Assembly: GCA_003635185.1 (NCBI GenBank)
Contig: PYJA01000015.1
Coordinates: 8,249-72,248, forward strand
Direction of reading: 5' to 3'
From: Candidatus Poribacteria bacterium
GTDB taxonomy: Bacteria > Poribacteria > WGA-4E > WGA-3G
DNA length: 64,000 nucleotides
Shown: piece after piece, positions 5,348 to 19,513 of the stretch
Position numbering within the stretch: position 1 is the stretch's first letter
How the letters are laid out: every line of letters starts with the position of its first letter
Notes under the pieces: generated by a model
Told to the model about the DNA's origin: nothing
Database searches by the model: none
Seen by the model: only the letters and a program-made list of their open reading frames with translations
Position numbers and translations under genes: made by a program

Positions 5348-6349
5348 TTACTGGATTTTCATATCTGCCCAAGTCGTTGTTAGTTTGTTTGTATCAGGAG
5401 CAACATCGTAAACGCCTTCAGTATCCAAAGCAATTCCAGCTACATAATTCAATCCTGTAAGAATATCTGTGACATTAGAACCGTCAAGGTTTGCTCGTTG
5501 GATTTTTCTCTTATGTATTATTTTCCCATTATGCTTTTGTGTATCCCTTTCTATCCAGTATATTTTACGGGAATGTGGATCTAAAGCAATATAGGTAGGA
5601 GCGTTGAGATCCGAAAGAAAGGTTTCAATATTCTTCCCATCAAGTGACGCTGTTCTTATTACCCCCATGATAATTTTAGTCCAATACATTTTTTTGTTAA
5701 CCAAATCAAGTGCAATTTTGTCATGATATATCATACGAGGAGGAAGATTCTCATAATTTGATCCATTCATATCCACACGGGCGATATTATCATTTAATGA
5801 ATCTTGGAAATATATCTTACCGGCTTTCACATCAAGTTGAATGTCTTCTGCATCCACTCTTATATTAAAAACGCCGCCATCCACAGGTAATATTGTAATA
5901 TCTTCAATATTTGAACCGTCAATATCTGATCGCGTCATTCCCCATGGTGCCCACATATTACCCCAATATATTTTTTTGGCACTTGTATCTAATGTGATTG
6001 TGATTGGAGAATGTATCCGTTCAACTTTATCCGCATTTAAAGCTTGTGGATCGTAGATAGTTTCAACTTTCGTTCCATCAAGGTTTGCACGTTTGATGCT
6101 ATGTCTCCAACCAATCCAATAAATCTTATGGTTCTGAATATCCAAAGCGATATCCCTTATCAAATCATCATCTGTTAAGACACTTTCTACATTAGTACCG
6201 TCGAGGTTAGCCCGTCTAATTTTATCAGATTCTGTCCAATATATTTTAGCGCTTCCTTGCCCGTAACTTATATTTTGGACAACAGAAGTCAGCAAGATCA
6301 CAACGAAAATAAACACAATCCATTTTTGCGTCAAAACACGATTTTTCAT
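5348..6349 (-). CDS. Secreted YWTD-type beta-propeller protein
   Basis: 333 residues. A signal peptide (WIVFIFVVILLTSVVQNISY, then GQG) precedes repeated units of the LDL-receptor YWTD type: KIYWTESDKIRRANLDGTNV, KIYWIGWRHSIKRANLDGTK, KIYWGNMW, KIYFQDS, KMYWTKI and KIYWIERD. Each is followed by an ANLDG- or DGSN-like turn and an IALD strand. About six blades are visible, enough to close one propeller. Such domains usually bind proteins or ligands and are not enzymes. An AGGAG site lies 8 bases before the ATG. It is not clearly in an operon, since about 400 bases of repeat DNA separate it from the ThuA gene. Exact function is unknown. Confidence 0.8.
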   Translation of the reverse strand: MKNRVLTQKWIVFIFVVILLTSVVQNISYGQGSAKIYWTESDKIRRANLDGTNVESVLTDDDLIRDIALDIQNHKIYWIGWRHSIKRANLDGTKVETIYDPQALNADKVERIHSPITITLDTSAKKIYWGNMWAPWGMTRSDIDGSNIEDITILPVDGGVFNIRVDAEDIQLDVKAGKIYFQDSLNDNIARVDMNGSNYENLPPRMIYHDKIALDLVNKKMYWTKIIMGVIRTASLDGKNIETFLSDLNAPTYIALDPHSRKIYWIERDTQKHNGKIIHKRKIQRANLDGSNVTDILTGLNYVAGIALDTEGVYDVAPDTNKLTTTWADMKIQ

Positions 6350-6377
6350 GATTTAGACTCCTTCTTTTTTAATTCTG

Positions 6378-6534
6378 TAAAGTTTTTGGCATTGATTATT
6401 GAGTTTTACTTGTTCTCATCCATAGACACTAATTTGTCAAGATGCGGTAGGAGAGAACTCCTGTTCCCGACAGATCGAGATCTGGAGATCGCGCCTACCA
6501 TTCGGATTAGGTATAACAAGTGACAAAAACTTTA
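6378..6534. repeat. MITE-like element with 11-base terminal inverted repeats
   Basis: TAAAGTTTTTG at 6378-6388 is exactly complementary to 6524-6534. The core (6446-6498) is an imperfect palindrome containing GTAGGAG, CTCC-TTCCCGAC and GGAGATCG-GCCTAC blocks. The same blocks recur at 63424-63487 and partly at 8814-8837. No coding capacity is seen; it fills most of the gap after the propeller gene. Confidence 0.6.
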
Positions 6535-6643
6535 TACGCCATGAGTTCGACATGGGGCATGTTTAAATGTTGCAATGAAATAGCGGAGCATAAAGCCTTC
6601 GCCTTACAATTTAAATTTAATCAAATGTCTATGTATTTTTATC

Positions 6644-6866
6644 AGGGCCTCCGCATTTTTTCTTAAAGTTCCACTGATAAGGAGGATTGAGGGAGTTATA
6701 CCATTTCTATCAATTTTTGTCCATTAGCTGTTGTTAGAAATGAAGCGGAATGTGGCACAAACTGGAAGTTTATGGGACAAAAAAGAGACATTATATATCA
6801 GAAATGGTATTAGATCTCTGAAATAGCACCTTTTAACCCCTTATCAAGGAGGAATGCGTAAGTCCT
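6644..6866. repeat. MITE-like element interrupted by a second inverted-repeat element
   Basis: The ends (6644-6657 and 6853-6866) are 14-base inverted repeats with 3 mismatches. They match the ends of the complete element at 58469-58600. Inner blocks CTTAAAGT, CTGATAAGGAGGATT and ACCCCTTATCAAGGAGG also match that copy. The middle (6698-6810) is foreign to it and is bounded by its own perfect 11-base inverted repeat (ATACCATTTCT / AGAAATGGTAT). Part of that insert (6744-6765) recurs inverted at 27356-27377. This suggests one small element inserted into another. Confidence 0.6.
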
Positions 6867-6868
6867 AT

Positions 6869-7606
6869 TTATGAAAGACCATCCCAATACTTCCACATAT
6901 CTTCAGGGGTATCAAACTTAATCTCATCCAGGTCTTTCCTGCGGTACCTACCGATGAGTGCAATTCGGACGTTGCGTCCGCAGTTCGGTCCGGCAGTATG
7001 ACTCATTTGGTGATGCCAAAAACAGACATCTCCACCTTCACCTGTGAATTCATAACTCGGTCCCAAATCAAAGGGAGCAACGCCACCGGGAAGGCTATCC
7101 AGGTCATGATGTCTAAAATATTCCGCCCAGATGCGATGACTTCCAGGCCAAATAGTAAACCCACCCCCCTGTTTTTCAACTGTGTCCAGATAGACGCTTG
7201 CACCGAGTGTAAAAGCACCGATGACCCCCTTTGGGACACCGTTTGAAGGGGTATGGTATCCGTCCAGATGCCCTAAAGGTTCGCGCCATTCTCTGTCCGG
7301 ATCCGGGAAATTGATATGTGGACCTGCACCGCCATCGGGGTGTAGTTTGCCTTCACCTACCATCTCCTCAGCCATTGCGAAGACGTTGTTACCATAGATT
7401 GTTCCCTTGATGACATCTTCGCCACCGATAGGGGCAGTGCGGTATCCCTTGCGAATCCAAGATTCTGGGTCACTTCTATCTTCTTCAAGTGAATCCCAAA
7501 CTTTATCTAAGGCGGCGTCAATTTCTTCCTGATTTAGCGCGCCGCGCACAACCAGATAACCGTTTTCTTTAAAAAATTCTTTATCTGCGTCTGTTAGCAA
7601 AGCCAT
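6869..7606 (-). CDS. Phytanoyl-CoA dioxygenase (PhyH) family protein
   Basis: 245 residues, of usual size for bacterial PhyH-like Fe(II)/2-oxoglutarate oxygenases. The N-terminal FFKENGYLVVRGALNQEEID is typical. The iron triad is visible as H and D in GHLDGYHTP and the distal H in HHQMSHTAGPN. The 2-oxoglutarate-binding Arg fits NVRIALIGRYRR. AAGGA lies before the ATG. The gene sits 20 bases downstream of an enolase-superfamily gene on the same strand, so the two probably form an operon for catabolism or modification of an unknown organic acid. Members of this family act on very different substrates, so none is proposed. Confidence 0.88.
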   Translation of the reverse strand: MALLTDADKEFFKENGYLVVRGALNQEEIDAALDKVWDSLEEDRSDPESWIRKGYRTAPIGGEDVIKGTIYGNNVFAMAEEMVGEGKLHPDGGAGPHINFPDPDREWREPLGHLDGYHTPSNGVPKGVIGAFTLGASVYLDTVEKQGGGFTIWPGSHRIWAEYFRHHDLDSLPGGVAPFDLGPSYEFTGEGGDVCFWHHQMSHTAGPNCGRNVRIALIGRYRRKDLDEIKFDTPEDMWKYWDGLS

Positions 7607-7626
7607 AGTTTTATTCCTTTTTATAT

Positions 7627-8751
7627 TTAAGCGTTGACAACAAATCCGTTCTCTTTAACTGCTTTTTGATACGGTTCTTCATCTATTCTCAACCCAAAGC
7701 CAGGAAGATCAGGGACCTTCACATAGCCATTAGAAATAGAATAGCTGGAGTCGTCTATCCCTGGTGTTGTTGCATGATCCCATTCGACAAATTCAAATTT
7801 TTCAACTTTCGCAGCGAGGTGACCCGTGACAAAATTGCCGTAGTATCCGCCATAGTGATGTGGTGCTGTGCCAACGCCAGCTGCATCCAATTCCGGTCCC
7901 AATTCAAGCCATCTTGAGAAGCCAGGATGAAAAATATCGTATTGCACAATGTCAATAAGTCCATCTTTCGCCCAATTAACTAAATGGGGGGATGCACCAC
8001 CTTCACCATCAGCGATTTTAGTCTGTATCCCTTCTGCATTTAACCATTCTTTCAGTAAACTATAGACGCGTGCGTCCTCGTGGAATGCCTCTTCCATCCA
8101 ATACACGTTTGCGTCTGCTGCGCCACCCAATACCTGTTTCGTGATATTAAGATTGTAGCCGTTGTTTGCGTCAATTAGAATTGTGGCATCCGGTCCCACG
8201 GCATCGCGCACTGCACAGATAACATCAATATCGCGTTGTGTGCCTTTTTCAAGCGGCATGTGCATTGCACCACGCCCAACCTTTATCTTGTAAGCATTGT
8301 GCCCGCGTGCCTTTCCCTCAAGTGCTTCGGACGCGATGAGGGCAGCAGCTTCTGCGTTGTCCTCAAGATGTAAGTCATCAATGTAAAGTGAAGTGTCGTA
8401 GCACGGTGCTTGAAAGTCGCCATCTTCACCAGATAACATCGCATAGACAGGTTTCTGCTCTAACTGCCCAACCAAATCCCATAGTGGATACTCCATGAAC
8501 CGATATTCTTCGGTCGCGCCGTTTTCTGCGTCAAAAGCCTCGCCCAGTTGAAATCCTACGATTGCTTCTGCTTTTTCGCGTGAAATTGACGAAAACCCGA
8601 TGCCACTTGCACCGTCAGAGGTTGTTATGCGTGCAATGGGAGGTCGCACATGTAAGCCGTGTTCACCGAGCCGCGAGTTGCAACCGGCTTTGCGTGGTCG
8701 TTCACCTGTCAAACGCGCCCATTCAATACGTTCTATTTTTACATTTTCCAA
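7627..8751 (-). CDS. Enolase-superfamily (mandelate racemase/muconate lactonizing-like) enzyme
   Basis: 374 residues. The C-terminal barrel shows the usual acid-base and metal residues: YKIKVGRG (Lys on strand 2), ILIDANNGYN (first metal Asp), WMEEAF (second metal Glu), ADGEGG (third ligand), and a His-rich end strand (APHHYGGYYG). The start is TTG at 8751, supported by AAGGAG six bases upstream; no ATG fits better. Family members dehydrate or racemise sugar acids and related compounds. The exact substrate cannot be read from sequence. It is the first gene of a two-gene unit with the PhyH gene. Confidence 0.85.
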   Translation of the reverse strand: MENVKIERIEWARLTGERPRKAGCNSRLGEHGLHVRPPIARITTSDGASGIGFSSISREKAEAIVGFQLGEAFDAENGATEEYRFMEYPLWDLVGQLEQKPVYAMLSGEDGDFQAPCYDTSLYIDDLHLEDNAEAAALIASEALEGKARGHNAYKIKVGRGAMHMPLEKGTQRDIDVICAVRDAVGPDATILIDANNGYNLNITKQVLGGAADANVYWMEEAFHEDARVYSLLKEWLNAEGIQTKIADGEGGASPHLVNWAKDGLIDIVQYDIFHPGFSRWLELGPELDAAGVGTAPHHYGGYYGNFVTGHLAAKVEKFEFVEWDHATTPGIDDSSYSISNGYVKVPDLPGFGLRIDEEPYQKAVKENGFVVNA

Positions 8752-8813
8752 GTTGTTCTCCTTATTTACACTGATTAAACTACTGCTATATCCACCTATA
8801 TTTATGGTTGAAA

Positions 8814-8837
8814 GTCGCGACCAGGAGGTCGCTCCTA
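8814..8837. repeat. Fragment of the dispersed GTAGGAGC-type palindromic core
   Basis: GTCGCGACCAGGAGGTCG followed by CTCCTAC matches the right half of the core seen at 63424-63487. No flanking terminal repeats were recognised here, so this is probably a remnant. Confidence 0.45.
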
Positions 8838-8911
8838 CAGAAGAGGTATTGTCATAAACAACGGTATCTAAGATTTAAACAATTTACCCACAATTGAAAG
8901 TGGAAAAAGCA

Positions 8912-9421
8912 TTACATTTGCGTTTGAAGTAAAGCAATGCTTTTCGGGTCTAATTTATTATAGTTCTCTATTTCATATCGGTTGCCATCAGCATCTTTAA
9001 TGAGGACACGTCCGCTTTCAAGGGTGACAATATCGTATCGGGTCCGGATTCCGAACTCCACATCGCCTTGAGTCGTTTCGACATCCCACGTTGTAACACC
9101 AAATTGCCCATCAAGCGAATTGATTTTAGTAATTTTCGGCATAAAGTATCGTTTTTGCAACTCGTCCATCAAGACATCGCGAGACTGGGGTGTAAGCTTT
9201 CGGACATCCTCCACAATTCCGATTTCACTTCCTTCGCTATCTAATAAGGCTATGTAGCGAACCGTTTCGCTTACTGGAAAACTACGCACAGGTTCAACCT
9301 TCGTATGTGTTGTTCCATCGGGAAGTTGCACAACCAGTTCTGCATAAGCGTTGCGAGCAATGCTGACTTTGCTTGCGTCAAGGAATTCTAATTCGTCCGT
9401 AACCTTTATCGGTTCATTCAT
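8912..9421 (-). CDS. DUF1854 protein, partner of the adjacent ABC exporter
   Basis: 169 residues. The C-terminal two thirds match DUF1854: DVRKLTPQSRDVLMDELQKR, YFMPKI, QFGVTTWDVETTQGDVEFGI, and VLIKDADGNRYEIENYNKLD. A start ATG follows GGAGG. It lies 28 bases downstream of the ABC exporter gene (9450-11963). The same order, ABC exporter then DUF1854, occurs at 58619-61512, so the pairing is not accidental. DUF1854 proteins beside such exporters have been linked to cyanophycin metabolism in other bacteria; nothing here (no cyanophycin synthetase or cyanophycinase) supports that role locally. Molecular function is unknown. Confidence 0.82.
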   Translation of the reverse strand: MNEPIKVTDELEFLDASKVSIARNAYAELVVQLPDGTTHTKVEPVRSFPVSETVRYIALLDSEGSEIGIVEDVRKLTPQSRDVLMDELQKRYFMPKITKINSLDGQFGVTTWDVETTQGDVEFGIRTRYDIVTLESGRVLIKDADGNRYEIENYNKLDPKSIALLQTQM

Positions 9422-9449
9422 TAGTGTGCCTCCTGCAACCTACTACAGA

Positions 9450-11963
9450 CTACCATGCGCGAATTTTGGATAGTTCGGTCTGTTTTTGACACAGATTTGC
9501 ATAAGTGCCATCTTTCGCAATTAATTCCTCATGTGTGCCGATTTCGTCTACTTCACCCTCTTTTAGCACAACGAGTCTATTGGCATACTTTAGAGTTGAC
9601 AATCTATGCGCAATTGCGAACACTGTCCGCCCTTGAACGAGTCGCTCTAACGCTTCTTGGATTTTAGATTCTGTTTCAGTATCTATGGAAGAAGTGGCTT
9701 CATCAAGAATTAGAATGCGGGGATTTTTTAAGATAGCACGTGCAATAGAAATCCTTTGCCGTTCACCGCCAGAAACGCGTGCGCCACGCTCTCCGACCAT
9801 TGTATCATAACCGTCTGGAAATTTGATAATAAAGTCGTGAGCATTCGCGGCTTTGGCTGCAGCGATGATCTCATGCCGAGAGGATCCCGGTTTTGAATAG
9901 CCGATATTTTCAGCGATTGTTCCCGCAAACAGAAACGGATCTTGCAGCACGACCCCAACCTGCTGGCGTAGTGCCTTAATCCGGATATCTTTGCTGTTGT
10001 GTCCATCTATAACGATTGTGCCTCGGTTTGGATCGTAGAAACGGGTAATCAGATTCACAAGTGTGCTTTTTCCTGCGCCACTATGTCCAACTAATCCTAT
10101 CATTTCACCGGGTTGCACGTCAAAACTTATACCATTTAGAGCATTCTTTTCGTTATCGTAAGAGAAATAAACATCCTTAAATTCAATTGCACCTCTGATA
10201 TTCGCGAGTGCCACAGCATCTTGTTTGTCTGCAACGCTTGGTGGCGTATCCAAAATTTCAAATACGCGTTCTGCTGAAGTGCCTGCCCGGATAAATCTTT
10301 CATTCATTTGGCATAGGGTGTACACAGGGCCGAAGAATTGCATGATGTATGACTGAAACATGACGAGAATACCCAGTGTTATATCGCCTTGGAAGAGCTG
10401 CCAACCACCTACTAACCAGATAATGATAGACCCTGAATAGGTAAAAAGTTGCATCATTGGACGGTAGAGTGATCCAAGTTTTGCCGCATTCATTTCTCCA
10501 GAAAATACTTCGTAAGTCATCTCGCTAAACCGGCTTATTTCATACCGTTCTCGTGCAAATGCCTTGACAACACGCACCCCCGGAATCGTACTTGCAAGGA
10601 TTGTGCTAATGTTTGCGTATCGTTTCCATAACACATGGTATACTTTGCTCATCTTTTTCCCAAAAAAGATAGTGAAAAAGATAAGACAAGGGATCGGAAT
10701 TAACGTCCATAATGCAAGTTTCCAACTGAAAAGGAACATGATAATGCACATATTGATGAGCGTTAGAGAATCACCGATGATATCCTGTAACCCATTTGCA
10801 ATGAAATCGCGTAGTCTTGATACATCATGTGTGATCCTGGACATCAGATTACCTGTGTCGCGTTCATGGAAAAAGTCAATAGAGAGCGCGTTCAGATGTT
10901 CGTAAGTTTCGTTTTGGAGTCGGCGCGTGATATTCTGACCTACCCATGCCATCATATACCCACGCACAGACGAAACTGCCATCGTAAAGACTCTAATCCC
11001 TGCCATGAATGCAACAAGCCAAATTAGATGTCCAAAACTACCACCGAGTGGCATGCTGCCGAACCATCCACTCAGAACATTTTTTATGCCTTCCAGATGT
11101 CCCCAACTTGTTTCGGGAAGCTGTTCGGGAACCGGTCCTCCGTTGTCAACAGCAGCAGAGATAACAGTTCCGGCGGGGTCAAGGATATTGTCAACTAACT
11201 CTTTACTTAGAATAGGTGGAAGTACAGCAACAAAACGAATTACCAGCATCAACAGGAACGCAGGGATCATGATATATAAAAATGGGATTGCATATTTGAA
11301 CAAGCGAAAAATGAGTTTACTATTTTGAACACAGTTTACACAAACCCCAGACCAAGTTGGGATAGGTTCGCCGCATTTCTCACATCTGCTTTTATCGCCA
11401 CCTGGCTGCATGCCAGGGTTCCCACCAGGGCCACGCCTACCACGCCTTCTGCCACCTGATCCGGGACCGCCTCTGCCACGCGCACCATCACCTGAATCGG
11501 CATCCTTAAGTGCAGGTAATTTTTCTAATTCTGAAACAGCAAGGTTGAATTTTGGGGTTAACCTTTTAGAATAGCGCGCCAATTCAAAGGCATTTTCTGA
11601 TGTCGTAACCTTGAGTATGTTATTGCCGTACATCTCAAGGATTTCAATGTCTTCAACGGAGGTGAGAGCCACCTCTCGCATGTCGTGTCCAAGGACACCG
11701 CTCTGATTGAAAGCAATCAGTCGTTTATCTGTAGCTAATAACCAATCTTTACCATAAGTGCTGTCAAACCGCAGATCGGTTGAAACAGCAACTTTGATTT
11801 CCTCCCCTTTTTCAAGTAGTTCTTGTGCCTGTTTTTGTAGGAGTTCAGGCACATCTTCCTTCGTCGTTAACTCGTTGTTCCCCTTTTTTCGGCGCGGTCT
11901 ACCATTAAAAGATCCCATCCGGTGAGATTTCCCACGCCTTGAACCTGACATCGGATTGTGCAT
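9450..11963 (-). CDS. ABC exporter (fused permease-ATPase) with N-terminal PH-like domain and zinc ribbon
   Basis: 837 residues. A basic start (GSRRGKSHR, RPRRKKG) precedes a domain resembling bacterial PH-like folds (EIKVAVSTDLRF, WLLATDKRLIAF). A Gly/Arg-rich linker and a zinc ribbon (CEKCGEPI, then CVNC, near residues 193-215) come next. The type IV exporter membrane domain has six segments. The ATPase has Walker A GHSGAGKST (near 626), signature VSGGERQRI, Walker B RILILDEATSS and the switch His in AIAHRLS. It should act as a homodimer in the inner membrane. The N-terminal extension is not part of ordinary exporters and may be a regulatory module. It pairs with the DUF1854 gene downstream and is paralogous to 58619-60940. 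Confidence 0.87.
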   Translation of the reverse strand: MHNPMSGSRRGKSHRMGSFNGRPRRKKGNNELTTKEDVPELLQKQAQELLEKGEEIKVAVSTDLRFDSTYGKDWLLATDKRLIAFNQSGVLGHDMREVALTSVEDIEILEMYGNNILKVTTSENAFELARYSKRLTPKFNLAVSELEKLPALKDADSGDGARGRGGPGSGGRRRGRRGPGGNPGMQPGGDKSRCEKCGEPIPTWSGVCVNCVQNSKLIFRLFKYAIPFLYIMIPAFLLMLVIRFVAVLPPILSKELVDNILDPAGTVISAAVDNGGPVPEQLPETSWGHLEGIKNVLSGWFGSMPLGGSFGHLIWLVAFMAGIRVFTMAVSSVRGYMMAWVGQNITRRLQNETYEHLNALSIDFFHERDTGNLMSRITHDVSRLRDFIANGLQDIIGDSLTLINMCIIMFLFSWKLALWTLIPIPCLIFFTIFFGKKMSKVYHVLWKRYANISTILASTIPGVRVVKAFARERYEISRFSEMTYEVFSGEMNAAKLGSLYRPMMQLFTYSGSIIIWLVGGWQLFQGDITLGILVMFQSYIMQFFGPVYTLCQMNERFIRAGTSAERVFEILDTPPSVADKQDAVALANIRGAIEFKDVYFSYDNEKNALNGISFDVQPGEMIGLVGHSGAGKSTLVNLITRFYDPNRGTIVIDGHNSKDIRIKALRQQVGVVLQDPFLFAGTIAENIGYSKPGSSRHEIIAAAKAANAHDFIIKFPDGYDTMVGERGARVSGGERQRISIARAILKNPRILILDEATSSIDTETESKIQEALERLVQGRTVFAIAHRLSTLKYANRLVVLKEGEVDEIGTHEELIAKDGTYANLCQKQTELSKIRAW

Positions 11964-11984
11964 AAATCAACCCCCACAGAATTA

Positions 11985-12144
11985 ATTTATAGTAGACTTT
12001 AGAATTAATTAGACATTATGTTCGGTTAGGAAACCGAACCTACCGGGGTGTTGTAGCACAAACTTTCAGTTTGTGTCCGCATCTGCACAAACTAAAAGTT
12101 TGTGCTACGGAAGTGTCCCACTAATTATAGGTTTTACTATAAAT
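11985..12144. repeat. MITE-like element with terminal ATTTATAGTA repeats
   Basis: The left end (11985-12012) and right end (12121-12144) are imperfect inverted repeats starting ATTTATAGTA. The core holds a short hairpin (TTCGGTT-AGG-AACCGAA, about 12021-12038) and two facing copies of a CACAAACT-AGTTTGTG hairpin. The rest of the gap to the next gene shows nothing else. Confidence 0.6.
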
Positions 12145-12227
12145 GACTTTTCTTTTTAACGAATTTTAGGGGGAAAGGTTGAATAAAAATATAACGCTGT
12201 GGATGTCCTTTAATCTGGATGTTCCGA

Positions 12228-12989
12228 TTAATAATCGATCACTTCTAAATCTTGCATCCGCTCAAGCGCAAAGACACGATTATCTTGACGCAATTCACAG
12301 AATCCCTCTACACACAACGTCTGACCAGAATCCCGACTGTTCGGTATATTAAATAGCCGATCTGGCACAACTGTGCGCGTCATCCACGTCTTAGCGTTCG
12401 GCTTCTTATAGTCAAACCGAATCTTTTGATTATTCTTAATAGCAGATTGGATCTCCTTAACTTGTGGCGCGAACTCTGATTGAGACGGATTCAGGGTAAA
12501 ACTATCAAAAATATCACCTGGGCCGTGCATACTCTCATGACACGGTTTGCAAATCAATTCGAGATTATCCAACTCGTTCGTTCCGTATTCACACAAAGGA
12601 ATCTCGTGGACCAGATAAACGTCTGCTTCCTCTCCGCAGCTTGAACAGATTGAACCGTTCTGCTGAATGAGGTGGCGTTTGCGCTCATCCCAATCCGGCG
12701 GCCAACTCGGCAAGAAATCATAAATTGAGGTTAAAGTGTTTTTCAGTTTTGTAAGTTCGGAGGATAAACTTCTCACCTCTTCCTGCGATGCGGCCTCTCC
12801 ATTTGCAACTTCAGTCTGTGCAAAGAGAGACAAAATGAGTTGTGAGTTCTGTCTACGCAGAACAGCCTCAATTTCATCTTTCCGCATTTGCAGCTTAATC
12901 AGACAAGAAGAATGGAGATGGTTACCGTTAGATAGATCGATATCATATTCATAGTCGGCATATTGCTTACACACGGTACAGTAAGGCAT
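12228..12989 (-). CDS. HNH nuclease-WYL domain fusion with N-terminal Cys/His zinc motif
   Basis: 253 residues with an unusual order of parts. C4, C7, H26 and C29 may form a small zinc site. A helical coiled stretch (about 33-95) follows. An HNH domain has C115 and C118, H128, N141, C147, C150, H151 and H155 (CSSCGEE, VHEIPL, LICKPCHESMHG). A C-terminal WYL-type domain (about 176-253) has IRFDYKK, TVVPDRLF, LCVEGFCELRQDNRVFALER and LEVIDY. WYL domains sense ligands or nucleic acid in many defence regulators, so this may be a nuclease under WYL control. It is 15 bases after the AAA-nuclease gene and probably cotranscribed with it. GAGG precedes the ATG. Confidence 0.72.
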   Translation of the reverse strand: MPYCTVCKQYADYEYDIDLSNGNHLHSSCLIKLQMRKDEIEAVLRRQNSQLILSLFAQTEVANGEAASQEEVRSLSSELTKLKNTLTSIYDFLPSWPPDWDERKRHLIQQNGSICSSCGEEADVYLVHEIPLCEYGTNELDNLELICKPCHESMHGPGDIFDSFTLNPSQSEFAPQVKEIQSAIKNNQKIRFDYKKPNAKTWMTRTVVPDRLFNIPNSRDSGQTLCVEGFCELRQDNRVFALERMQDLEVIDY

Positions 12990-13004
12990 TTTACAATCCT
13001 CATT

Positions 13005-14624
13005 TTAATTGTCAAAACTTTCTGCTGAGGGACGTTCCTGCATAACAGGAATAACATAACTCCGAATCTTAAAATCTTCTATTTCTTCTGTCTCAGCACG
13101 GGGTTCTGGATTGGTGCGATGGTCAAAGACAACATAGTAACCCTCTATAGCGCTTTCTAATTTGAGATATGATGCAAGTTGCCGTTTACCTTTCTGATAA
13201 CTCACTTCGCCTCTCCACACTTTTGTTTCAACTATGTATTTTTGTTGATTATGCGTGATGAGTAGGTCCATCCTACCGCGTCCGGTTTGCACCTCAATGT
13301 GCATAAATCCACCTACTAATCGGACAAACTGCTCAAGATACGCAAGCAGCAGATGCCGCCCTACAGATTCTTGCGGTGTATCAGGCACTTGGAGTATTTT
13401 AAACCCCACCCGTGCAATGAAATCTCGAAAGTTATCAAGCAGTGCTCCCATTTCTATATGTCCAGTCGTAGAAAGGTAATCGAGAAAACCTTCGCGGGTG
13501 TCTTCAGGTAGATATTCCTGCTCTAATCCGTTCACTGCTGGTTTGAAGGTTTGTAAGATACAATAAAAATAAATTGGGTTCGCAATTTCACACATGCCAT
13601 CTGTGCCACTTTTTATCACGCCATAAGTTGCAAGTTCACTGATAAGATCATCGCGAAGATTAAAAGCCATCCCATCATCAGATGCAGTGATTCTCATCAA
13701 GATACTTGCAAAACGTGGATTTCTGCGGATATTTGTTGTCAAATGGTCAATGTTCGTATTGCGTTCATGAAGCAGCTGGAAGTGTGCCTGTGAGAAGTGA
13801 TCCATCGTAATTGATTCTGTCTTTGGAATGTCAAGCTCATCGGTCAGTATTTGTGCGATTCTATTGACGAGAAAAGGCTGCCCTGCAGTCTGCTTATGGA
13901 TAGATTCAATTACCTCTGGCAAAAAGGATTGTCCGACTTCTTCCGTATACTGCTGTAAGAGTTCATGCACTTGTTCACATGTGAAGTTTGAGAGGTGGAA
14001 TTCATCTTGAATGTTGAAAGGTGATATAGAGCGGTCATAATTGAGTTGGGCAATACTTTTAACACCGACAATTCCAACGCTATGCGGACATTTTGGAGTT
14101 GAATTTGAAACATAGATACGACGAAGTGAGCGGAGAAAACCTACTAATGCTTCTTGCGGGATACCGTCAAATTCGTCTATGATTAGGATAACCCGATGCA
14201 TATCATATTCAGCTTTTAGTAAAGCTTCAAACTTCTCAAAGAATCTGCGCATTGAGACTTGATCGGTAATATTCGTATTTTCTAAAAATTGACGAAGTGT
14301 TTCTGAAAGTGTGTGTCCTTTTTTTTCGAAAACATTTACTATTTCATCACATAAATCTTGATAGAAATAGTTATAAAATGTTGACGAAGTGGATTCTTCA
14401 AATTCCTCAAAATTCAATGGTATAGGTAAGTAGACCGATTCATTATAATTGAAAATGTCAAGGGCGCGTTGAAAGAATGTTGTTTTACCCGTCTGGCGCG
14501 GTGCAAAGATAACGATATAACGCCCATCTTTGATGCGCGCAATAAAATCGTCGAGCTCGGCAGCACGACTAACAACATAATTCTTTTCTGGATGAACAGG
14601 GCCTTGTGTGCCAAAACGTCTCAT
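13005..14624 (-). CDS. AAA-like ATPase with C-terminal PD-(D/E)XK nuclease domain
   Basis: 539 residues. N-terminal P-loop ATPase of the STAND-like AAA type: Walker A FAPRQTGKTT (about 40-49) and Walker B VILIIDEFDGIP (D150, E151). A winged-helix-like part follows (about 260-350). The C-terminal part (about 440-510) fits a PD-(D/E)XK nuclease, with D453 in GRMDLLI and E466/K468 in YIVETKVW, then a Tyr-rich strand (EGYYVVFDHR). AAGGA precedes the ATG. It lies between an HNH gene (126 bases upstream) and the HNH-WYL gene (15 bases downstream), all on the minus strand. Such fusions are frequent in accessory DNA and suggest nucleic-acid restriction; the target is unknown. Confidence 0.8.
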   Translation of the reverse strand: MRRFGTQGPVHPEKNYVVSRAAELDDFIARIKDGRYIVIFAPRQTGKTTFFQRALDIFNYNESVYLPIPLNFEEFEESTSSTFYNYFYQDLCDEIVNVFEKKGHTLSETLRQFLENTNITDQVSMRRFFEKFEALLKAEYDMHRVILIIDEFDGIPQEALVGFLRSLRRIYVSNSTPKCPHSVGIVGVKSIAQLNYDRSISPFNIQDEFHLSNFTCEQVHELLQQYTEEVGQSFLPEVIESIHKQTAGQPFLVNRIAQILTDELDIPKTESITMDHFSQAHFQLLHERNTNIDHLTTNIRRNPRFASILMRITASDDGMAFNLRDDLISELATYGVIKSGTDGMCEIANPIYFYCILQTFKPAVNGLEQEYLPEDTREGFLDYLSTTGHIEMGALLDNFRDFIARVGFKILQVPDTPQESVGRHLLLAYLEQFVRLVGGFMHIEVQTGRGRMDLLITHNQQKYIVETKVWRGEVSYQKGKRQLASYLKLESAIEGYYVVFDHRTNPEPRAETEEIEDFKIRSYVIPVMQERPSAESFDN

Positions 14625-14632
14625 TTGCTTTT

Positions 14633-14662
14633 CCTTATCTATAGTATCTCACACAGATAAGG
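14633..14662. promoter_or_regulatory. Inverted repeat upstream of the AAA-nuclease gene
   Basis: CCTTATCT (14633-14640) and AGATAAGG (14655-14662) form an 8-base perfect inverted repeat, ending 9 bases before the AAA-nuclease ATG at 14624. It could be an operator or a leader hairpin for the last two genes of the cluster. No convincing -35/-10 pair was fixed beside it. Confidence 0.35.
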
Positions 14663-14750
14663 ATACCATAGGAATATAGGATTGTCAGGGGCGTGTACTG
14701 CGTGAGCCTTCTCTATCCAGCGGTAGAAAGTGGTGAATTGTGGATTTTGT

Positions 14751-15560
14751 TCATTGTTTTCTTAATTCTTTCCAAATGTCGCCGTATTTGTCCATAAATT
14801 CTTGATAATTCGGCAAATTCGTATTGTGTCCAGGCTGTTCTGCATGGCAACCAACACAGAGTGCTTTCAAGTCTTCTGGACGGTTATGTGAGGTGCCCCT
14901 CAAATGGTGAGCATGGAGAAATTTACGTTCAGTTTTTAAATTTAAGAATATACCACATTCTTCGCATTTCCATCCTGCCCTTTTGCGACACTGTAGTGAG
15001 ATCAAATTCCAATCAGGTGGATAATTTGAGACAGTACCTGTTGTTGGAGTAGTCTTGGGCCCCAAAAGACCATCTCTTGGAGGAGGCTCATAACTACCAT
15101 CAATGGCATTAAACCAGTCATCTAGTGGAAAAGCGTCGGGAGTATAAACATCTTTCAGGTTTAGTTCCTGCCATAAACAGTTTTTGCAAATATCCAGTCT
15201 GTATGTATCAGGGTTATCGCGCCGAAGGTTATCCGCAAAATTGAGGAGAAACTCTCCATCTGTTCGCCTTGTCACCACGTACCGTTTATACTTCCCAGCA
15301 TCTCGCATATCTTTGAGGGTTTGACAATCTACTACGTGATATTTTGGCAGACGACCTCTCACATCCCGAATATAAAGAACTACCTTTCGTCCCTGATATT
15401 CCAGTGTTCCGTTCGGAGCGACTTTAACATCATCGGGACCGACCGTTATACCTGGTCCTATTATTAATTTTTCTTTTTCCGTGTCAATGAATGGCTGGAA
15501 TGGCACTCCCAATCGTTTGAGCAGATCATCTAAATTCGGAAAATCTTTGGGTAACTTCAA
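14751..15560 (-). CDS. HNH endonuclease coupled to zorB (ZorE-like position)
   Basis: 269 residues. A C-terminal HNH domain has C199/C202 (KCEECG), H218/H219 (HAHHLRG), N226, and C235, C238 and H239 (LCVGCHAEQPGH). The N-terminal part is unknown; it has conserved-looking YHVVDCQTL, RYVVTRRTDGEF and an extra CxxC at 125-128 (ICKNC). The start is TTG at 15560: GGAGG lies 7 bases upstream, an in-frame stop lies just before it, and the TTG overlaps the zorB stop codon, so translation is probably coupled. In type II Zorya defence systems the third gene, zorE, encodes an HNH nuclease, so this is the likely effector. Whether it is homologous to ZorE outside the HNH motif could not be tested. Confidence 0.78.
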   Translation of the reverse strand: MKLPKDFPNLDDLLKRLGVPFQPFIDTEKEKLIIGPGITVGPDDVKVAPNGTLEYQGRKVVLYIRDVRGRLPKYHVVDCQTLKDMRDAGKYKRYVVTRRTDGEFLLNFADNLRRDNPDTYRLDICKNCLWQELNLKDVYTPDAFPLDDWFNAIDGSYEPPPRDGLLGPKTTPTTGTVSNYPPDWNLISLQCRKRAGWKCEECGIFLNLKTERKFLHAHHLRGTSHNRPEDLKALCVGCHAEQPGHNTNLPNYQEFMDKYGDIWKELRKQ

Positions 15561-16336
15561 TTCACTACCTCCGATTTATTAAATCGTTTCATAAGCTCTT
15601 CAATTTCTTTGATAAGTTTCTCGGATTTCGTGACAACCCTAAACTCAACCCGACGAGATTCCGCTCTGTTTTCTTGTCCAGATGAACTTAAAATGAGTTG
15701 GCTTGAAGATAAGCCATTGGCTGTCAAATTTTTCTTAATCCACTCTTTATTCCAAGTTATTTTAGGATGTTTGATTCCAAGCACATATCGCAGCACGTTT
15801 CGTGCCCTATTCTGAGATAATTCCATATTCTTAAAATAAGCTTCATCAAAAGTGACTTCACGATTCCACTCACCAGAAGTGTGACCTTCAATACGGATTT
15901 CGGCAATTCCATCTTTATATTCAGGCTTTGTTAAAATAGCAACATACCGCGGGAAGAAATCGCGTAAGACGCTTTTAAAGGCATTTGGAACGGTTGCATC
16001 CCCTTGGATAAAAGGTTTCTTAAAACGTATAGACAAAGTTTCCATATCCAAATATCCGCGCCACGTAGTCCTAAACTGGGTCTTTTTGGTGATATTTCCT
16101 TCGAATTCTGATTGCAACTCTTTGTACAAAGCTGCCTGTAAATTTTTGTAAGCATCAAGCAGTTCCTCAACTTCGTTTTTATAGACAATAATTTCATTTG
16201 CTTTGAGACGAACATTCAACATGTAACTAATAGAAATAAAGAGAAAAATCACCATCAATCCCGCCATCACATCAGATATTGATACCCAATGCTCTTCTGT
16301 TTCCTGTTCTTTGGTCCCCAATAAATTTTCTAACAC
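15557..16336 (-). CDS. zorB: ZorB-like OmpA-domain stator protein
   Basis: 259 residues. One N-terminal membrane helix carries a conserved Asp (D22) in VSISDVMAGLMVIFLFISI, the pattern of ZorB/MotB proton-path segments. A linker and an OmpA-like peptidoglycan-binding domain follow (about 145-245: AEIRIEGHTSGEW, ELSQNRARNVLRYVL, LILSSSGQENRAESRRVEFR). In Zorya systems ZorB assembles with ZorA as an ion-driven inner-membrane motor anchored to the cell wall. The gene begins with GTG 3 bases after the zorA stop and overlaps the HNH gene. A general Tol/Mot protein is less likely because of the SDVMAGLMVIFLF segment and the nuclease neighbour. Confidence 0.82.
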   Translation of the reverse strand: MLENLLGTKEQETEEHWVSISDVMAGLMVIFLFISISYMLNVRLKANEIIVYKNEVEELLDAYKNLQAALYKELQSEFEGNITKKTQFRTTWRGYLDMETLSIRFKKPFIQGDATVPNAFKSVLRDFFPRYVAILTKPEYKDGIAEIRIEGHTSGEWNREVTFDEAYFKNMELSQNRARNVLRYVLGIKHPKITWNKEWIKKNLTANGLSSSQLILSSSGQENRAESRRVEFRVVTKSEKLIKEIEELMKRFNKSEVVN

Positions 16337-16339
16337 CTG

Positions 16340-17842
16340 TTAAATCCTCTTGCTTTGTGCTTGCTGGCTTGCATTTACAAATTGTGTTAGTGCTGTTAGT
16401 GCTTGGGCGTAATGTCCGGCCAATTCCTGATAATTATCAACAAAACCGTTAGAAAGACTTTCAATGTTACCTGCCAGCGTTTGTAAAGAGTTTGTTAATT
16501 CTGCACGTAGAGATTCATTCAACGTATTAACTTCTTTACGAAGGTCCCCATGTAAGATGTTGACATGATTTTCTATATCTTCCTTGTTCCTTTCCACAAG
16601 GTTTTTTAGTTCCAAAGCAATCTTACTAACAGTATCTTCAAGTTCATCTGCATGCTCGTTTAGTTTCCTACGTTGTGTTTCCATACTTACATGGGAACTG
16701 TCAATTGTTTGTTCAACAGCAGCTGAAAGTCTTGTAGTGAGATTGTTTAAACGGTTTTCAATGAGTGGAAATGCCTCATGTGCTTGATCCCGCAAATTGC
16801 TGAACGCTTCCAATTGATCATTTAAGGTATGTAGAAGTGGTTCCATATCTTCAGCACAAACAACAATGCTGGAACTCTTGTCAGCGATTTCACTTGATGC
16901 TTCGGCTATCTGTTCCATAGATACGCGAGATTGTTCAATGCTTTCAGCTGCAACCCGAAATTCATCAGCAAGTTTATCCATCTGTTGACGGTATTGTTCC
17001 TGCCATGCTACTGTTCTCCCAACAGCCTCGTTTAACTGTTTAAAGTTTTCACCAAACTGCACGGTGAGTTTAGCGTTAAAATCCTCAATAACAGTCTTGA
17101 GTGCTTCAATTAATTCGTCAGTGGCAAGCTTCGCTACGCTTTCAGCAACGTTTTCTGAAAAAGCTTGAAATTCACTTTTCAACTCATCGTGTTTAGTAGT
17201 AATTTCTGTTTTCAAAGACCGCAATTCTGTAAGGAGATTGCCTTCACTATCGGACAAGGATGTCTCAATCGTGCTTAATCGCGACTCAGAAACAACCTTC
17301 AATAAGTTCTGCAGTTGGGTAAAAATAGTACGTTCTGTCTCGCCAGTTAATGCAGTTTTAACATCACGGATTCCACTCAAAACTGTCCCGATGTCATCTT
17401 TATCTTTAATGACTTTGGTCAAATCATCCAATTTTGAAGAGAGGTTGCTTTCTCCAGAGGTTTCAACGGATTCCAACGCTTCTTTTAACCCATCAACGAA
17501 TTTATTGATTGCCTCTTGACTCGGATCCCGAGCCCTAATCATTTGGTAGACGAAAGCGTACCCCTTTAGAATGATAGCCTCTAAGATTCCAACCAATGAG
17601 GTTAAGAAAGCAAGCTTGAGTCCATTTAATAACCCAGGAATGCTGGATTCAAGATTCTCAATCTCAAAAACCTGAAGTCCAATGAAGATACCAATAAATG
17701 TCCCAAAAACCCCGATTATAGTTAAAATTGAAGCCGCAGTGTTAGTATGTGTATACCAACCTTTTTTCCACCACAAAACACCGAATACCAGTAATCCAAT
17801 AACAAACTGAAAGCAAACATATCCAATTGTAAAAGAATCCAT
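16340..17842 (-). CDS. zorA: ZorA-like MotA/ExbB motor protein with long coiled-coil tail
   Basis: 500 residues. Membrane segments are IGYVCFQFVIGLLVFGVLWW, ASILTIIGVFGTFIGIFIGL and LKLAFLTSLVGILEAIIL. The GT-GI-GL and GLKLAFLTSLVG patterns are typical of ZorA/MotA/TolQ channels. After about residue 110 the rest is a long Glu/Lys/Leu/Ser-rich coiled coil, matching the long intracellular tail known for ZorA and absent from ordinary ExbB/TolQ. A start ATG follows AGGAGG. It is the first gene of the cluster zorA-zorB-HNH. In known Zorya systems the tail transmits phage sensing to cytoplasmic effectors. Confidence 0.82.
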   Translation of the reverse strand: MDSFTIGYVCFQFVIGLLVFGVLWWKKGWYTHTNTAASILTIIGVFGTFIGIFIGLQVFEIENLESSIPGLLNGLKLAFLTSLVGILEAIILKGYAFVYQMIRARDPSQEAINKFVDGLKEALESVETSGESNLSSKLDDLTKVIKDKDDIGTVLSGIRDVKTALTGETERTIFTQLQNLLKVVSESRLSTIETSLSDSEGNLLTELRSLKTEITTKHDELKSEFQAFSENVAESVAKLATDELIEALKTVIEDFNAKLTVQFGENFKQLNEAVGRTVAWQEQYRQQMDKLADEFRVAAESIEQSRVSMEQIAEASSEIADKSSSIVVCAEDMEPLLHTLNDQLEAFSNLRDQAHEAFPLIENRLNNLTTRLSAAVEQTIDSSHVSMETQRRKLNEHADELEDTVSKIALELKNLVERNKEDIENHVNILHGDLRKEVNTLNESLRAELTNSLQTLAGNIESLSNGFVDNYQELAGHYAQALTALTQFVNASQQAQSKRI

Positions 17843-17919
17843 AAAACCTCCTTGCGAATTCTATAATGAATAAATATAACAATGCGTACTAAAAAAGTCA
17901 ACGGGAATCTTCAATTTTC

Positions 17920-19374
17920 TCAATCCAACGGAAACAACGGCCGCCGAACATTCTCATACCTAAAATGCAGCGGATTCACCGCAGTCAATCCCGGTGTATC
18001 CACCTCAATAATCTTCCCAGCAATTGGTTCGTAGGCAGCGCGATATGCAATGGCAGCTTTCACAACAATCATCCGCATCGCTTCTGGATTGATGCCGAGA
18101 CTCAGTAGTTGCTGCAGGCTAAAAGGTGTTTGACGGTTGCTTGTCAGTACCACTAACGAGTCTCCTACAGCAACAACAGCTGTTAACCCTTGATTGTGGT
18201 ATTTTTGTCCGCCGTGGCGCGGTTCTGTCTCAATAAAATGTCCATCATGAATTAATCGGACTCTACCTCGAATTGGAACAGGATTCCCGTGTTGATTATC
18301 AGTTTTTCCACCGACCTGTAAAGACACTTGATTGCCAACGCCAATCTGAGTACAGGTCTGCACACATTCAGGATCACATAGCACCACGACAAATTCTGAT
18401 GCTTTTTGTCGTAGCAACTCCGCCAGAATGAAAGTGCTGTCACCGGGTGAACCGCCGCCAATGTTATCCCCCATTTCAACAAGAATTATAGGGTATTTGT
18501 TGCTTGAAATTGCTTGCTGTACAGCGTCTGCTGCGTCAGGTAGATTCAGTGTTAATTGGTCGTGGACATTCCACAACATATCTGATAACCGAGTAGCTTC
18601 TGTTTTTGCAAGTTGTGGGTTATCGTCCGTTACAACAACGAAGGATGGACCTGCCTCATGGACATCTGCGTAAGGATACCCCGCTGCTACATTAGCCACA
18701 AGAACGTTAGAATCGGTTTCAAGTTGCCGAGCTGCGTTTAGAATAGAGGACATTGGTTCCGTACTTGTATTTTGATATAGGATATTGAGTAGCATCGGTG
18801 GTTTGGCAAGTACCTGTGTAGGTGTTGCCTCTTCTCTGAGAATACGCATTATCAATTTTGCTGCCTGTAACCCGCGTTGCCGCTGATCAATGTGTGGGTT
18901 TGTTTTGTAGATTACAAACGCTGTTGAATTATCAACCATCTGCTGAGAGACATTTGCATGATGGTCAAGTGTGACGACAATTGGCAAAGATTCACCGAAG
19001 GTATATCGTAGTCTTTTTAGCACTTCTCCATCACCATCAGGATAACTTTCTGCCACCATCGCGCCGTGCAGGGCAAGCAGGAATCCATCCAGTTTCTGCA
19101 TTGCTTTGAGTTGTTGGACAAGCATATCGGTGAGTTTATCAAAAGCATCATTAGTTACGGGACCAGCAGGTGTGGCAGTCGCCATCACGGTAGGATGTGC
19201 CGTGTAGTTATAGTCTTCTGCACCTTGAATAAACCCGCCCATTTCATGATGTGTCCCTTTCCATACCGAAAACAGATCATCTCCAATAGTGTGAGAAAAC
19301 GCCTCAAAATCGGTAGGGGTTTTACTGAACGTATTAGATTCGTGCATGATCCCACCAATAGCAATCGTAGCCAT
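17920..19374 (-). CDS. M81 (MlrC-like) family metallopeptidase
   Basis: About 484 residues, the usual length of the MlrC/DUF1485 family. The N-terminal ATIAIGGIMHESNTFS is typical, followed by LALHGAMVAES, VVTLDHHANVS, VIYKTNPHIDQ with a metal-site His, and VEMGDNIGGGSPGDSTFIL. MlrC cleaves linearised microcystin; most relatives have unknown substrates, so a broad amidohydrolase or peptidase role is all that can be claimed. Two ATG codons are adjacent (19377, 19374); the second is chosen because AGGAG is then 6 bases away. It is on the minus strand just upstream of the zorA promoter region but is probably unrelated to defence. Confidence 0.85.
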   Translation of the reverse strand: MATIAIGGIMHESNTFSKTPTDFEAFSHTIGDDLFSVWKGTHHEMGGFIQGAEDYNYTAHPTVMATATPAGPVTNDAFDKLTDMLVQQLKAMQKLDGFLLALHGAMVAESYPDGDGEVLKRLRYTFGESLPIVVTLDHHANVSQQMVDNSTAFVIYKTNPHIDQRQRGLQAAKLIMRILREEATPTQVLAKPPMLLNILYQNTSTEPMSSILNAARQLETDSNVLVANVAAGYPYADVHEAGPSFVVVTDDNPQLAKTEATRLSDMLWNVHDQLTLNLPDAADAVQQAISSNKYPIILVEMGDNIGGGSPGDSTFILAELLRQKASEFVVVLCDPECVQTCTQIGVGNQVSLQVGGKTDNQHGNPVPIRGRVRLIHDGHFIETEPRHGGQKYHNQGLTAVVAVGDSLVVLTSNRQTPFSLQQLLSLGINPEAMRMIVVKAAIAYRAAYEPIAGKIIEVDTPGLTAVNPLHFRYENVRRPLFPLD

Positions 19375-19513
19375 CATGTTCTCCTATAAATGTCGTTGTG
19401 TTCTGAAATTATTATGGATATTCTATAATGCCAACTCTGAAGCAATTTAGGGTGTGTCCATATTTTGCAAAAGTTTGGGCTAAGGTGCGTTGTCTGAGAC
19501 GTTTCCCATTTTG

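What the first reader, a model, noticed from the sequence alone, without database searches (positions are those of the whole stretch)
12228..17842. Extended Zorya-like locus with three extra nuclease modules
Sequence shows a ZorA-like channel with a long coiled-coil tail, a ZorB-like protein (Asp in the membrane helix, OmpA domain) and an HNH gene coupled to zorB, the order of type II Zorya (zorA-zorB-zorE). Immediately after, on the same strand, lie an AAA ATPase-PD-(D/E)XK protein and an HNH-WYL protein. Known Zorya types I to III use ZorC/ZorD, ZorE or ZorF/ZorG; adding an AAA-nuclease and a WYL nuclease to a type II core is not a combination I know. It may be a Zorya variant with extra effectors, or two adjacent defence systems.
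Basis: partly seen in the sequence, partly recalled or inferred. Interest (0 to 1): 0.85.

Follow-up and report, generated by a model that had tools for sequence, protein, structure and literature searches.

The report
Ordinary Zorya beside unrelated resident genes
In a sponge-symbiont bacterium (Candidatus Poribacteria), a standard three-gene anti-phage system (type II Zorya) sits directly upstream of two older resident genes that relatives carry at the same site without it, so this is two neighbours and not a new five-gene defence machine.

Summary
Five same-strand genes are present: zorA, zorB, zorE, an AAA_35-PD-(D/E)XK gene and an HNH-WYL gene. The first three form a canonical type II Zorya operon (PADLOC E 6e-70, 9e-80, 4e-50). 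The "extended Zorya" reading fails.

(1) Three congeners carry mlrC-AAA35-HNH/WYL with no Zorya, at this same chromosomal site in at least two of them.
(2) AAA35 keeps its own promoter-like site, conserved in Zorya-less relatives.
(3) AAA35 is a multicopy family: 8 full copies here, 1-17 in every member of its GTDB family.
(4) HNH-WYL occurs in 27 of 59 family genomes, type II Zorya in 10 and both in 5 (Fisher p = 1).
(5) No other Zorya II examined has the pair directly downstream.
(6) The HNH motif is not conserved within the HNH-WYL family, so "nuclease" is doubtful there.

The mlrC flank looks like a small defence hotspot: type II Zorya in 6 of 10 Zorya-bearing family genomes, a type IIG R-M gene in many others. 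AAA35+HNH/WYL recurs as a tight pair (15 of 23 relatives) and may be a Poribacteria-specific module of its own. Overall: new member of a known kind, low interest.

The parts
16340..17842 (-). zorA (type II), 500 aa: membrane helices plus long coiled-coil tail
   Evidence: PADLOC ZorA2 E 5.6e-70; NCBIfam ZorA2 2e-45; PDB 8vvi chain F, type II ZorA, E 3.8e-35
15557..16336 (-). zorB (type II), 259 aa: membrane helix with Asp22 (SISDVMAGLM), OmpA-like domain
   Evidence: PADLOC ZorB2 9.3e-80; OmpA PF00691 5e-8; PDB 8vvi chain A 4.3e-34; Asp conserved in the alignment
14751..15560 (-). zorE, 269 aa, HNH nickase, overlaps the zorB stop by 4 bp; lacks the long C-terminal extension of E. coli ZorE
   Evidence: PADLOC ZorE2 4.3e-50; H75, Y180, H219, N226, H239, H245 align with E. 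coli ZorE H90, Y189, H226, N234, H247, H253; K231 is S224 here
17873..17901 (-). promoter-like site before zorA (TTGACT-17-TATATT, TG before -10)
   Evidence: consensus match only
14660..14688 (-). separate promoter-like site of the AAA35-HNH/WYL pair (CTGACA-17-TATCCT); equivalent TTGACA...TATCCT/TATGCT/TATTCT in Zorya-less congeners
13005..14624 (-). AAA_35 ATPase with C-terminal PD-(D/E)XK nuclease; resident multicopy family, not part of Zorya
   Evidence: AAA_35 2.4e-19; 8 full copies in the genome; Walker A/B and E444, D453, E466, K468 invariant in 25 copies; syntenic without Zorya in L075, L076, L077
12228..12989 (-). HNH-like zinc domain plus WYL domain, 253 aa; Poribacteria-restricted family, usually behind AAA35
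   Evidence: WYL 2.2e-11; 27 of 59 family genomes; all 23 genome-collection loci are Poribacteria; adjacency
17920..19377 (-). mlrC (M81 metallopeptidase family), conserved left flank of the integration site
   Evidence: PF07364 3e-96; same neighbour in relatives
8912..11963 (-). DUF1854 gene and ABC transporter, conserved right flank of the site within the genus
   Evidence: L074, L075, L077, L122, L123

Best explanation
The interval holds two independent units. Unit 1 is a canonical type II Zorya operon. By the published mechanism, ZorA5B2 sits in the inner membrane bound to peptidoglycan, senses phage attack at the envelope and, using ion flow and the ZorA tail, recruits the ZorE nickase to cut DNA. 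Here that mechanism is inferred from homology and kept residues. Unit 2 is an older resident pair with its own promoter-like site: an AAA_35-PD-(D/E)XK ATPase-nuclease from a family expanded across these genomes, and an HNH-like/WYL protein that is more likely a nucleic-acid-sensing regulator or partner than a second nuclease (inferred). Zorya occupies the space between mlrC and the pair in this genome. That site is a recurrent landing or retention site for type II Zorya and other defence genes in the family.
For: Zorya identity. Essential-residue conservation: against PMC13192584. Mechanism: PMC11890865. Zorya-less mlrC-AAA35-HNH/WYL loci: L075, L076, L077, with the site edges resolved to a few tens of bases. 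mlrC-AAA35 without Zorya or HNH/WYL: G030 and G036. Separate conserved promoter-like site. AAA35 multicopy. No co-occurrence: HNH/WYL 27, Zorya II 10, both 5 of 59, Fisher p = 1. Zorya II without the pair directly downstream: L097-L099, L101-L105, E. coli and Psychrobacter plasmids; the 7.5-kb Psychrobacter plasmid carries only ZorA-, ZorB- and ZorE-like genes beside replication and mobilisation genes and one hypothetical gene.
Against: All five genes share one strand with short gaps, and no strong terminator was found between zorE and AAA35, so read-through transcription is possible. The AAA35 promoter is a consensus match and is untested. In two other genomes (G067, G082) the pair and Zorya share one island, 6-10 kb apart. 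In this genome type II Zorya and HNH/WYL are each single-copy and adjacent.
Confidence: 0.93

Rival explanations
1. One extended Zorya variant: the AAA-nuclease and the HNH/WYL protein are extra effectors or regulators of this ZorAB core, working as a five-gene system.
For: Same strand and compact spacing. Co-residence in one island in G067 and G082.
Against: Zorya-less mlrC-AAA35-HNH/WYL loci. Association odds ratio 1.2, p = 1. Multicopy AAA35. Separate promoter-like site conserved without Zorya. No other Zorya II examined has this pair directly downstream.
Confidence: 0.03
2. Two adjacent defence systems: type II Zorya plus a distinct small defence module (AAA_35-PD-(D/E)XK nuclease + HNH/WYL sensor) that stays in the same hotspot.
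For: The pair is tightly linked in 15 of 23 relatives. Catalytic ATPase and nuclease residues are invariant. The WYL half resembles BrxR, CapW, PafBC and DriD in fold (weak). In at least 10 relatives a type IIG R-M gene lies divergently upstream.
Against: AAA35 alone is far more widespread than the pair. PADLOC has no strong full-length hit for either gene. The HNH residues are not kept. The HNH/WYL model is poor (mean pLDDT 56). This is a sub-case of the best explanation, not excluded by it.
Confidence: 0.3
3. The pair is not defence: AAA35 copies are a selfish or housekeeping expanded ATPase family that happens to lie here, and HNH/WYL is a local regulator.
For: 1-17 copies per genome at many loci with diverse neighbours. 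Related AAA-like genes on cyanobacterial and other plasmids are annotated only as ATP-binding protein or similar.
Against: Conserved pairing with HNH/WYL at this site and strict conservation of nuclease residues suggest a selected function of the pair.
Confidence: 0.5
4. The ZorAB-like pair is housekeeping MotAB/TolQR rather than Zorya.
For: MotA_ExbB PF01618 and OmpA matches.
Against: ZorA2/ZorB2 profiles and the solved type II ZorAB beat every MotAB/TolQR model by large margins, with zorE coupled.
Confidence: 0.01

Closest known systems
Type II Zorya (ZorA-ZorB-ZorE; E. coli type and Sulfuricurvum kujiense ZorAB, PDB 8vvi)
   Same: Gene order, zorB-zorE overlap, ZorA motor and long tail, ZorB Asp and OmpA domain, ZorE N-terminal and HNH domains with essential residues
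   Different: ZorE is shorter than the E. coli protein (269 against 367 aa) and lacks the C-terminal region seen in Druantia-linked ZorE; E. coli K231 is Ser here
AAA_35 (PF14516) / archaeal-type ATPase with PD-(D/E)XK tail families
   Same: P-loop ATPase fused to a C-terminal restriction-like nuclease, multicopy, stand-alone
   Different: Here one copy is tightly paired with HNH/WYL; function unknown
WYL regulators of defence loci (BrxR, CapW) and of DNA damage (PafBC, DriD)
   Same: C-terminal WYL fold
   Different: N-terminal HNH-like zinc domain instead of the winged helix of BrxR/CapW/PafBC-type regulators; pairs with an ATPase-nuclease

Membership tests
Type II Zorya | ZorA: MotA/ExbB motor domain with long cytoplasmic tail | tested here: met
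   ZorA2 profile E 5.6e-70 over residues 8-496; 8vvi_F matches motor and tail
Type II Zorya | ZorB: single membrane helix with ion-path Asp, plus OmpA-like peptidoglycan-binding domain | tested here: met
   ZorB2 9.3e-80; Asp22 in SISDVMAGLM aligned across relatives; OmpA
Type II Zorya | ZorE HNH nickase encoded directly after zorB | tested here: met
   ZorE2 4.3e-50; overlaps zorB by 4 bp; essential residues kept except K231
Type II Zorya | Anti-phage activity | not testable with these tools
   needs cloning and phage challenge
Extended Zorya (five-gene system) | Co-occurrence of AAA35 and HNH/WYL with zorABE across genomes | tested here: not met
   5 of 59 genomes have both HNH/WYL and Zorya II, p = 1; direct adjacency seen only in the window genome
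Extended Zorya (five-gene system) | Single transcription unit | tested here: inconclusive
   AAA35 has its own conserved promoter-like site, but read-through is not excluded
Type I Zorya | ZorC and ZorD downstream of zorAB | tested here: not met
   absent here; a separate complete type I set lies at G000:C69
HNH nuclease (last gene) | Conserved His-Asn-His residues | tested here: not met
   H128 invariant, but N142 and H151 vary across 24 family members; the window copy itself keeps them
WYL-domain protein (last gene) | C-terminal WYL domain | tested here: met
   PF13280 2.2e-11; fold resembles PafBC, BrxR, DriD (low-confidence model)

The most novel reading that the evidence does not exclude
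The AAA_35-PD-(D/E)XK + HNH/WYL pair is an undescribed, Poribacteria-specific two-gene defence module, with an ATPase-nuclease effector controlled by a WYL nucleic-acid sensor, kept in a hotspot where type II Zorya and type IIG R-M also settle.
Probability: 0.25. Interest if true: 0.45.

Novelty: new member of a known kind. Interest (0 to 1): 0.2.

Why it matters
It prevents a false claim of a new Zorya type: adjacency on one strand produced an apparent five-gene system that Zorya-less relatives take apart. It also records a complete type II Zorya in sponge-symbiont Poribacteria, a likely defence hotspot beside mlrC, and a conserved uncharacterised AAA35-HNH/WYL pair that could be tested.

Tried and rejected
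MotAB/TolQR housekeeping reading: rejected by profile scores. Zorya type I or III: rejected, no ZorC/D/F/G nearby. Kinship of the window HNH/WYL with the WYL gene 1.2 kb after zorE on the E. coli plasmid: rejected, no significant match (best E 2.6). Mobile-element edges of the Zorya insert: no convincing flanking direct repeats. Vertical against repeated acquisition of Zorya at mlrC: a ZorB tree was unresolved. Literature search for the AAA_35 family, for HNH-WYL and for Poribacteria Zorya gave nothing specific. Structures: AAA35 mean pLDDT 77, hits are generic AAA+ ATPases; HNH/WYL mean pLDDT 56, only the WYL half is informative. Laying the whole genome in the script box was not available.

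Full report
Observation. The five ORFs are present on the - strand as described. Pfam, PADLOC and NCBIfam place the first three as ZorA2, ZorB2 and ZorE2. The solved type II ZorAB complex (PDB 8vvi) is the best sequence match for both membrane proteins. ZorB carries the membrane-helix Asp. ZorE keeps the residues equivalent to E. coli H90, Y189, H226, N234, H247 and H253, positions reported as needed for Zorya II function or synergy in PMC13192584. K231 is Ser. It lacks the C-terminal region that the same preprint links to Druantia III synergy. The Zorya part is therefore ordinary type II.

Source. Whole-genome and GTDB searches put the window in Candidatus Poribacteria: the last gene, 96% identical in the nearest relative, matches only Poribacteria records. 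The window is G000:C15:8249-72248 in a draft genome (82% complete) of 141 contigs.

Are the last two genes part of Zorya? In three congeners (G035, G041, G044; loci L075, L076, L077) the order is mlrC-AAA35-HNH/WYL with no Zorya. Both outer flanks also match the window in G035 and G044. In G030 and G036 it is mlrC-AAA35-ABC with neither Zorya nor HNH/WYL. The DNA after the mlrC stop codon and the DNA in front of AAA35 both match the Zorya-less loci, so in this genome Zorya is an insert of about 3.2 kb. The AAA35 promoter-like element (TTGACA-17-TATCCT type) is shared with Zorya-less relatives, so the pair had its own promoter without Zorya.

Copy number and co-occurrence. AAA35 has 8 full copies in this genome (the other seven 63-66% identical to the window copy) and 1-17 strong matches in every one of the 59 genomes of its GTDB family. 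HNH/WYL is found in 27 of those 59, type II Zorya in 10 (one of them, G075, cut by a contig end) and both in 5, which is what independence predicts (Fisher p = 1). None of the other type II Zorya loci read here has the pair directly downstream: L097-L099, L101-L105, and E. coli and Psychrobacter plasmids. In G067 and G082 the pair and Zorya share one island, 6-10 kb apart, with a type IIG R-M gene between.

The hotspot. Type II Zorya lies beside or within about 10 kb of mlrC in G000, G033, G028, G029, G082 and G075, and probably in G067, where contig ends fall between. That is 6 or 7 of 10 Zorya-bearing family genomes, far above chance for a 4-7 Mb genome. Other relatives hold a type IIG R-M gene, SNase-like or Uma2-like genes there. 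A ZorB tree does not decide between repeated landing and ancestral presence.

What the pair may be. AAA35 ends within about 20 bp of, or overlaps, HNH/WYL in 15 of 23 fetched relatives. AAA35 keeps Walker A and B and E444, D453, E466, K468 without exception in 25 copies. In HNH/WYL the zinc Cys residues and H128 are invariant, but N142 and H151 are not, while the WYL core is the most conserved part. The WYL half resembles PafBC, BrxR, CapW and DriD (on a low-confidence model). I infer a nuclease-ATPase with a WYL-type sensor or regulator. Whether it defends against phage is open.

Mechanism. Shown in the literature for type II Zorya (PMC11890865): ZorA5B2 complex, peptidoglycan binding, ion flow, the ZorA tail, ZorE recruitment to the membrane on infection, and nicking of DNA. 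Inferred here by homology: that this operon does the same. Not shown: any activity of the last two genes, and any link between the two units.

Verdict. A new member of a known system next to a resident uncharacterised pair. The claim of an extended Zorya is not supported; the fallback of two adjacent units is.

Noticed in passing
L112 (G000:C69) 5768-13553: The same genome carries a complete type I Zorya (ZorA1, ZorB, ZorC1, ZorD1; PADLOC) on another contig, so one genome has both Zorya types.
   Followed up: partly
L105 (G009:C24) 6616-12696: A distant relative has zorA (split in two ORFs)-zorB-zorE-zorB'-zorA': two ZorAB pairs around one zorE. It may be a frameshift plus a duplication, or a real double-motor arrangement.
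   Followed up: no
L084 8781-11861 and equivalents in at least 9 other HNH/WYL loci: A roughly 1030-aa type IIG restriction-methyltransferase lies divergently upstream of the AAA35-HNH/WYL pair in many genomes of genus g4.
   Followed up: partly
L101 8399-9091 and 12501-13190: In G028 the Zorya operon at the mlrC site is flanked on both sides by staphylococcal-nuclease-like genes.
   Followed up: no
window 14590-14665: An inverted repeat CCTTATCT-N14-AGATAAGG overlaps the AAA35 -10 region and start, partly kept in congeners; it could be an operator.
   Followed up: no
ZorA 16340-17842 compared with relatives: The start of the ZorA tail (residues 111-260) is less conserved (28-53% against the nine family relatives) than ZorB (59-83%) in the same operons, with length differences of about 100-230 aa in most.
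   Followed up: partly
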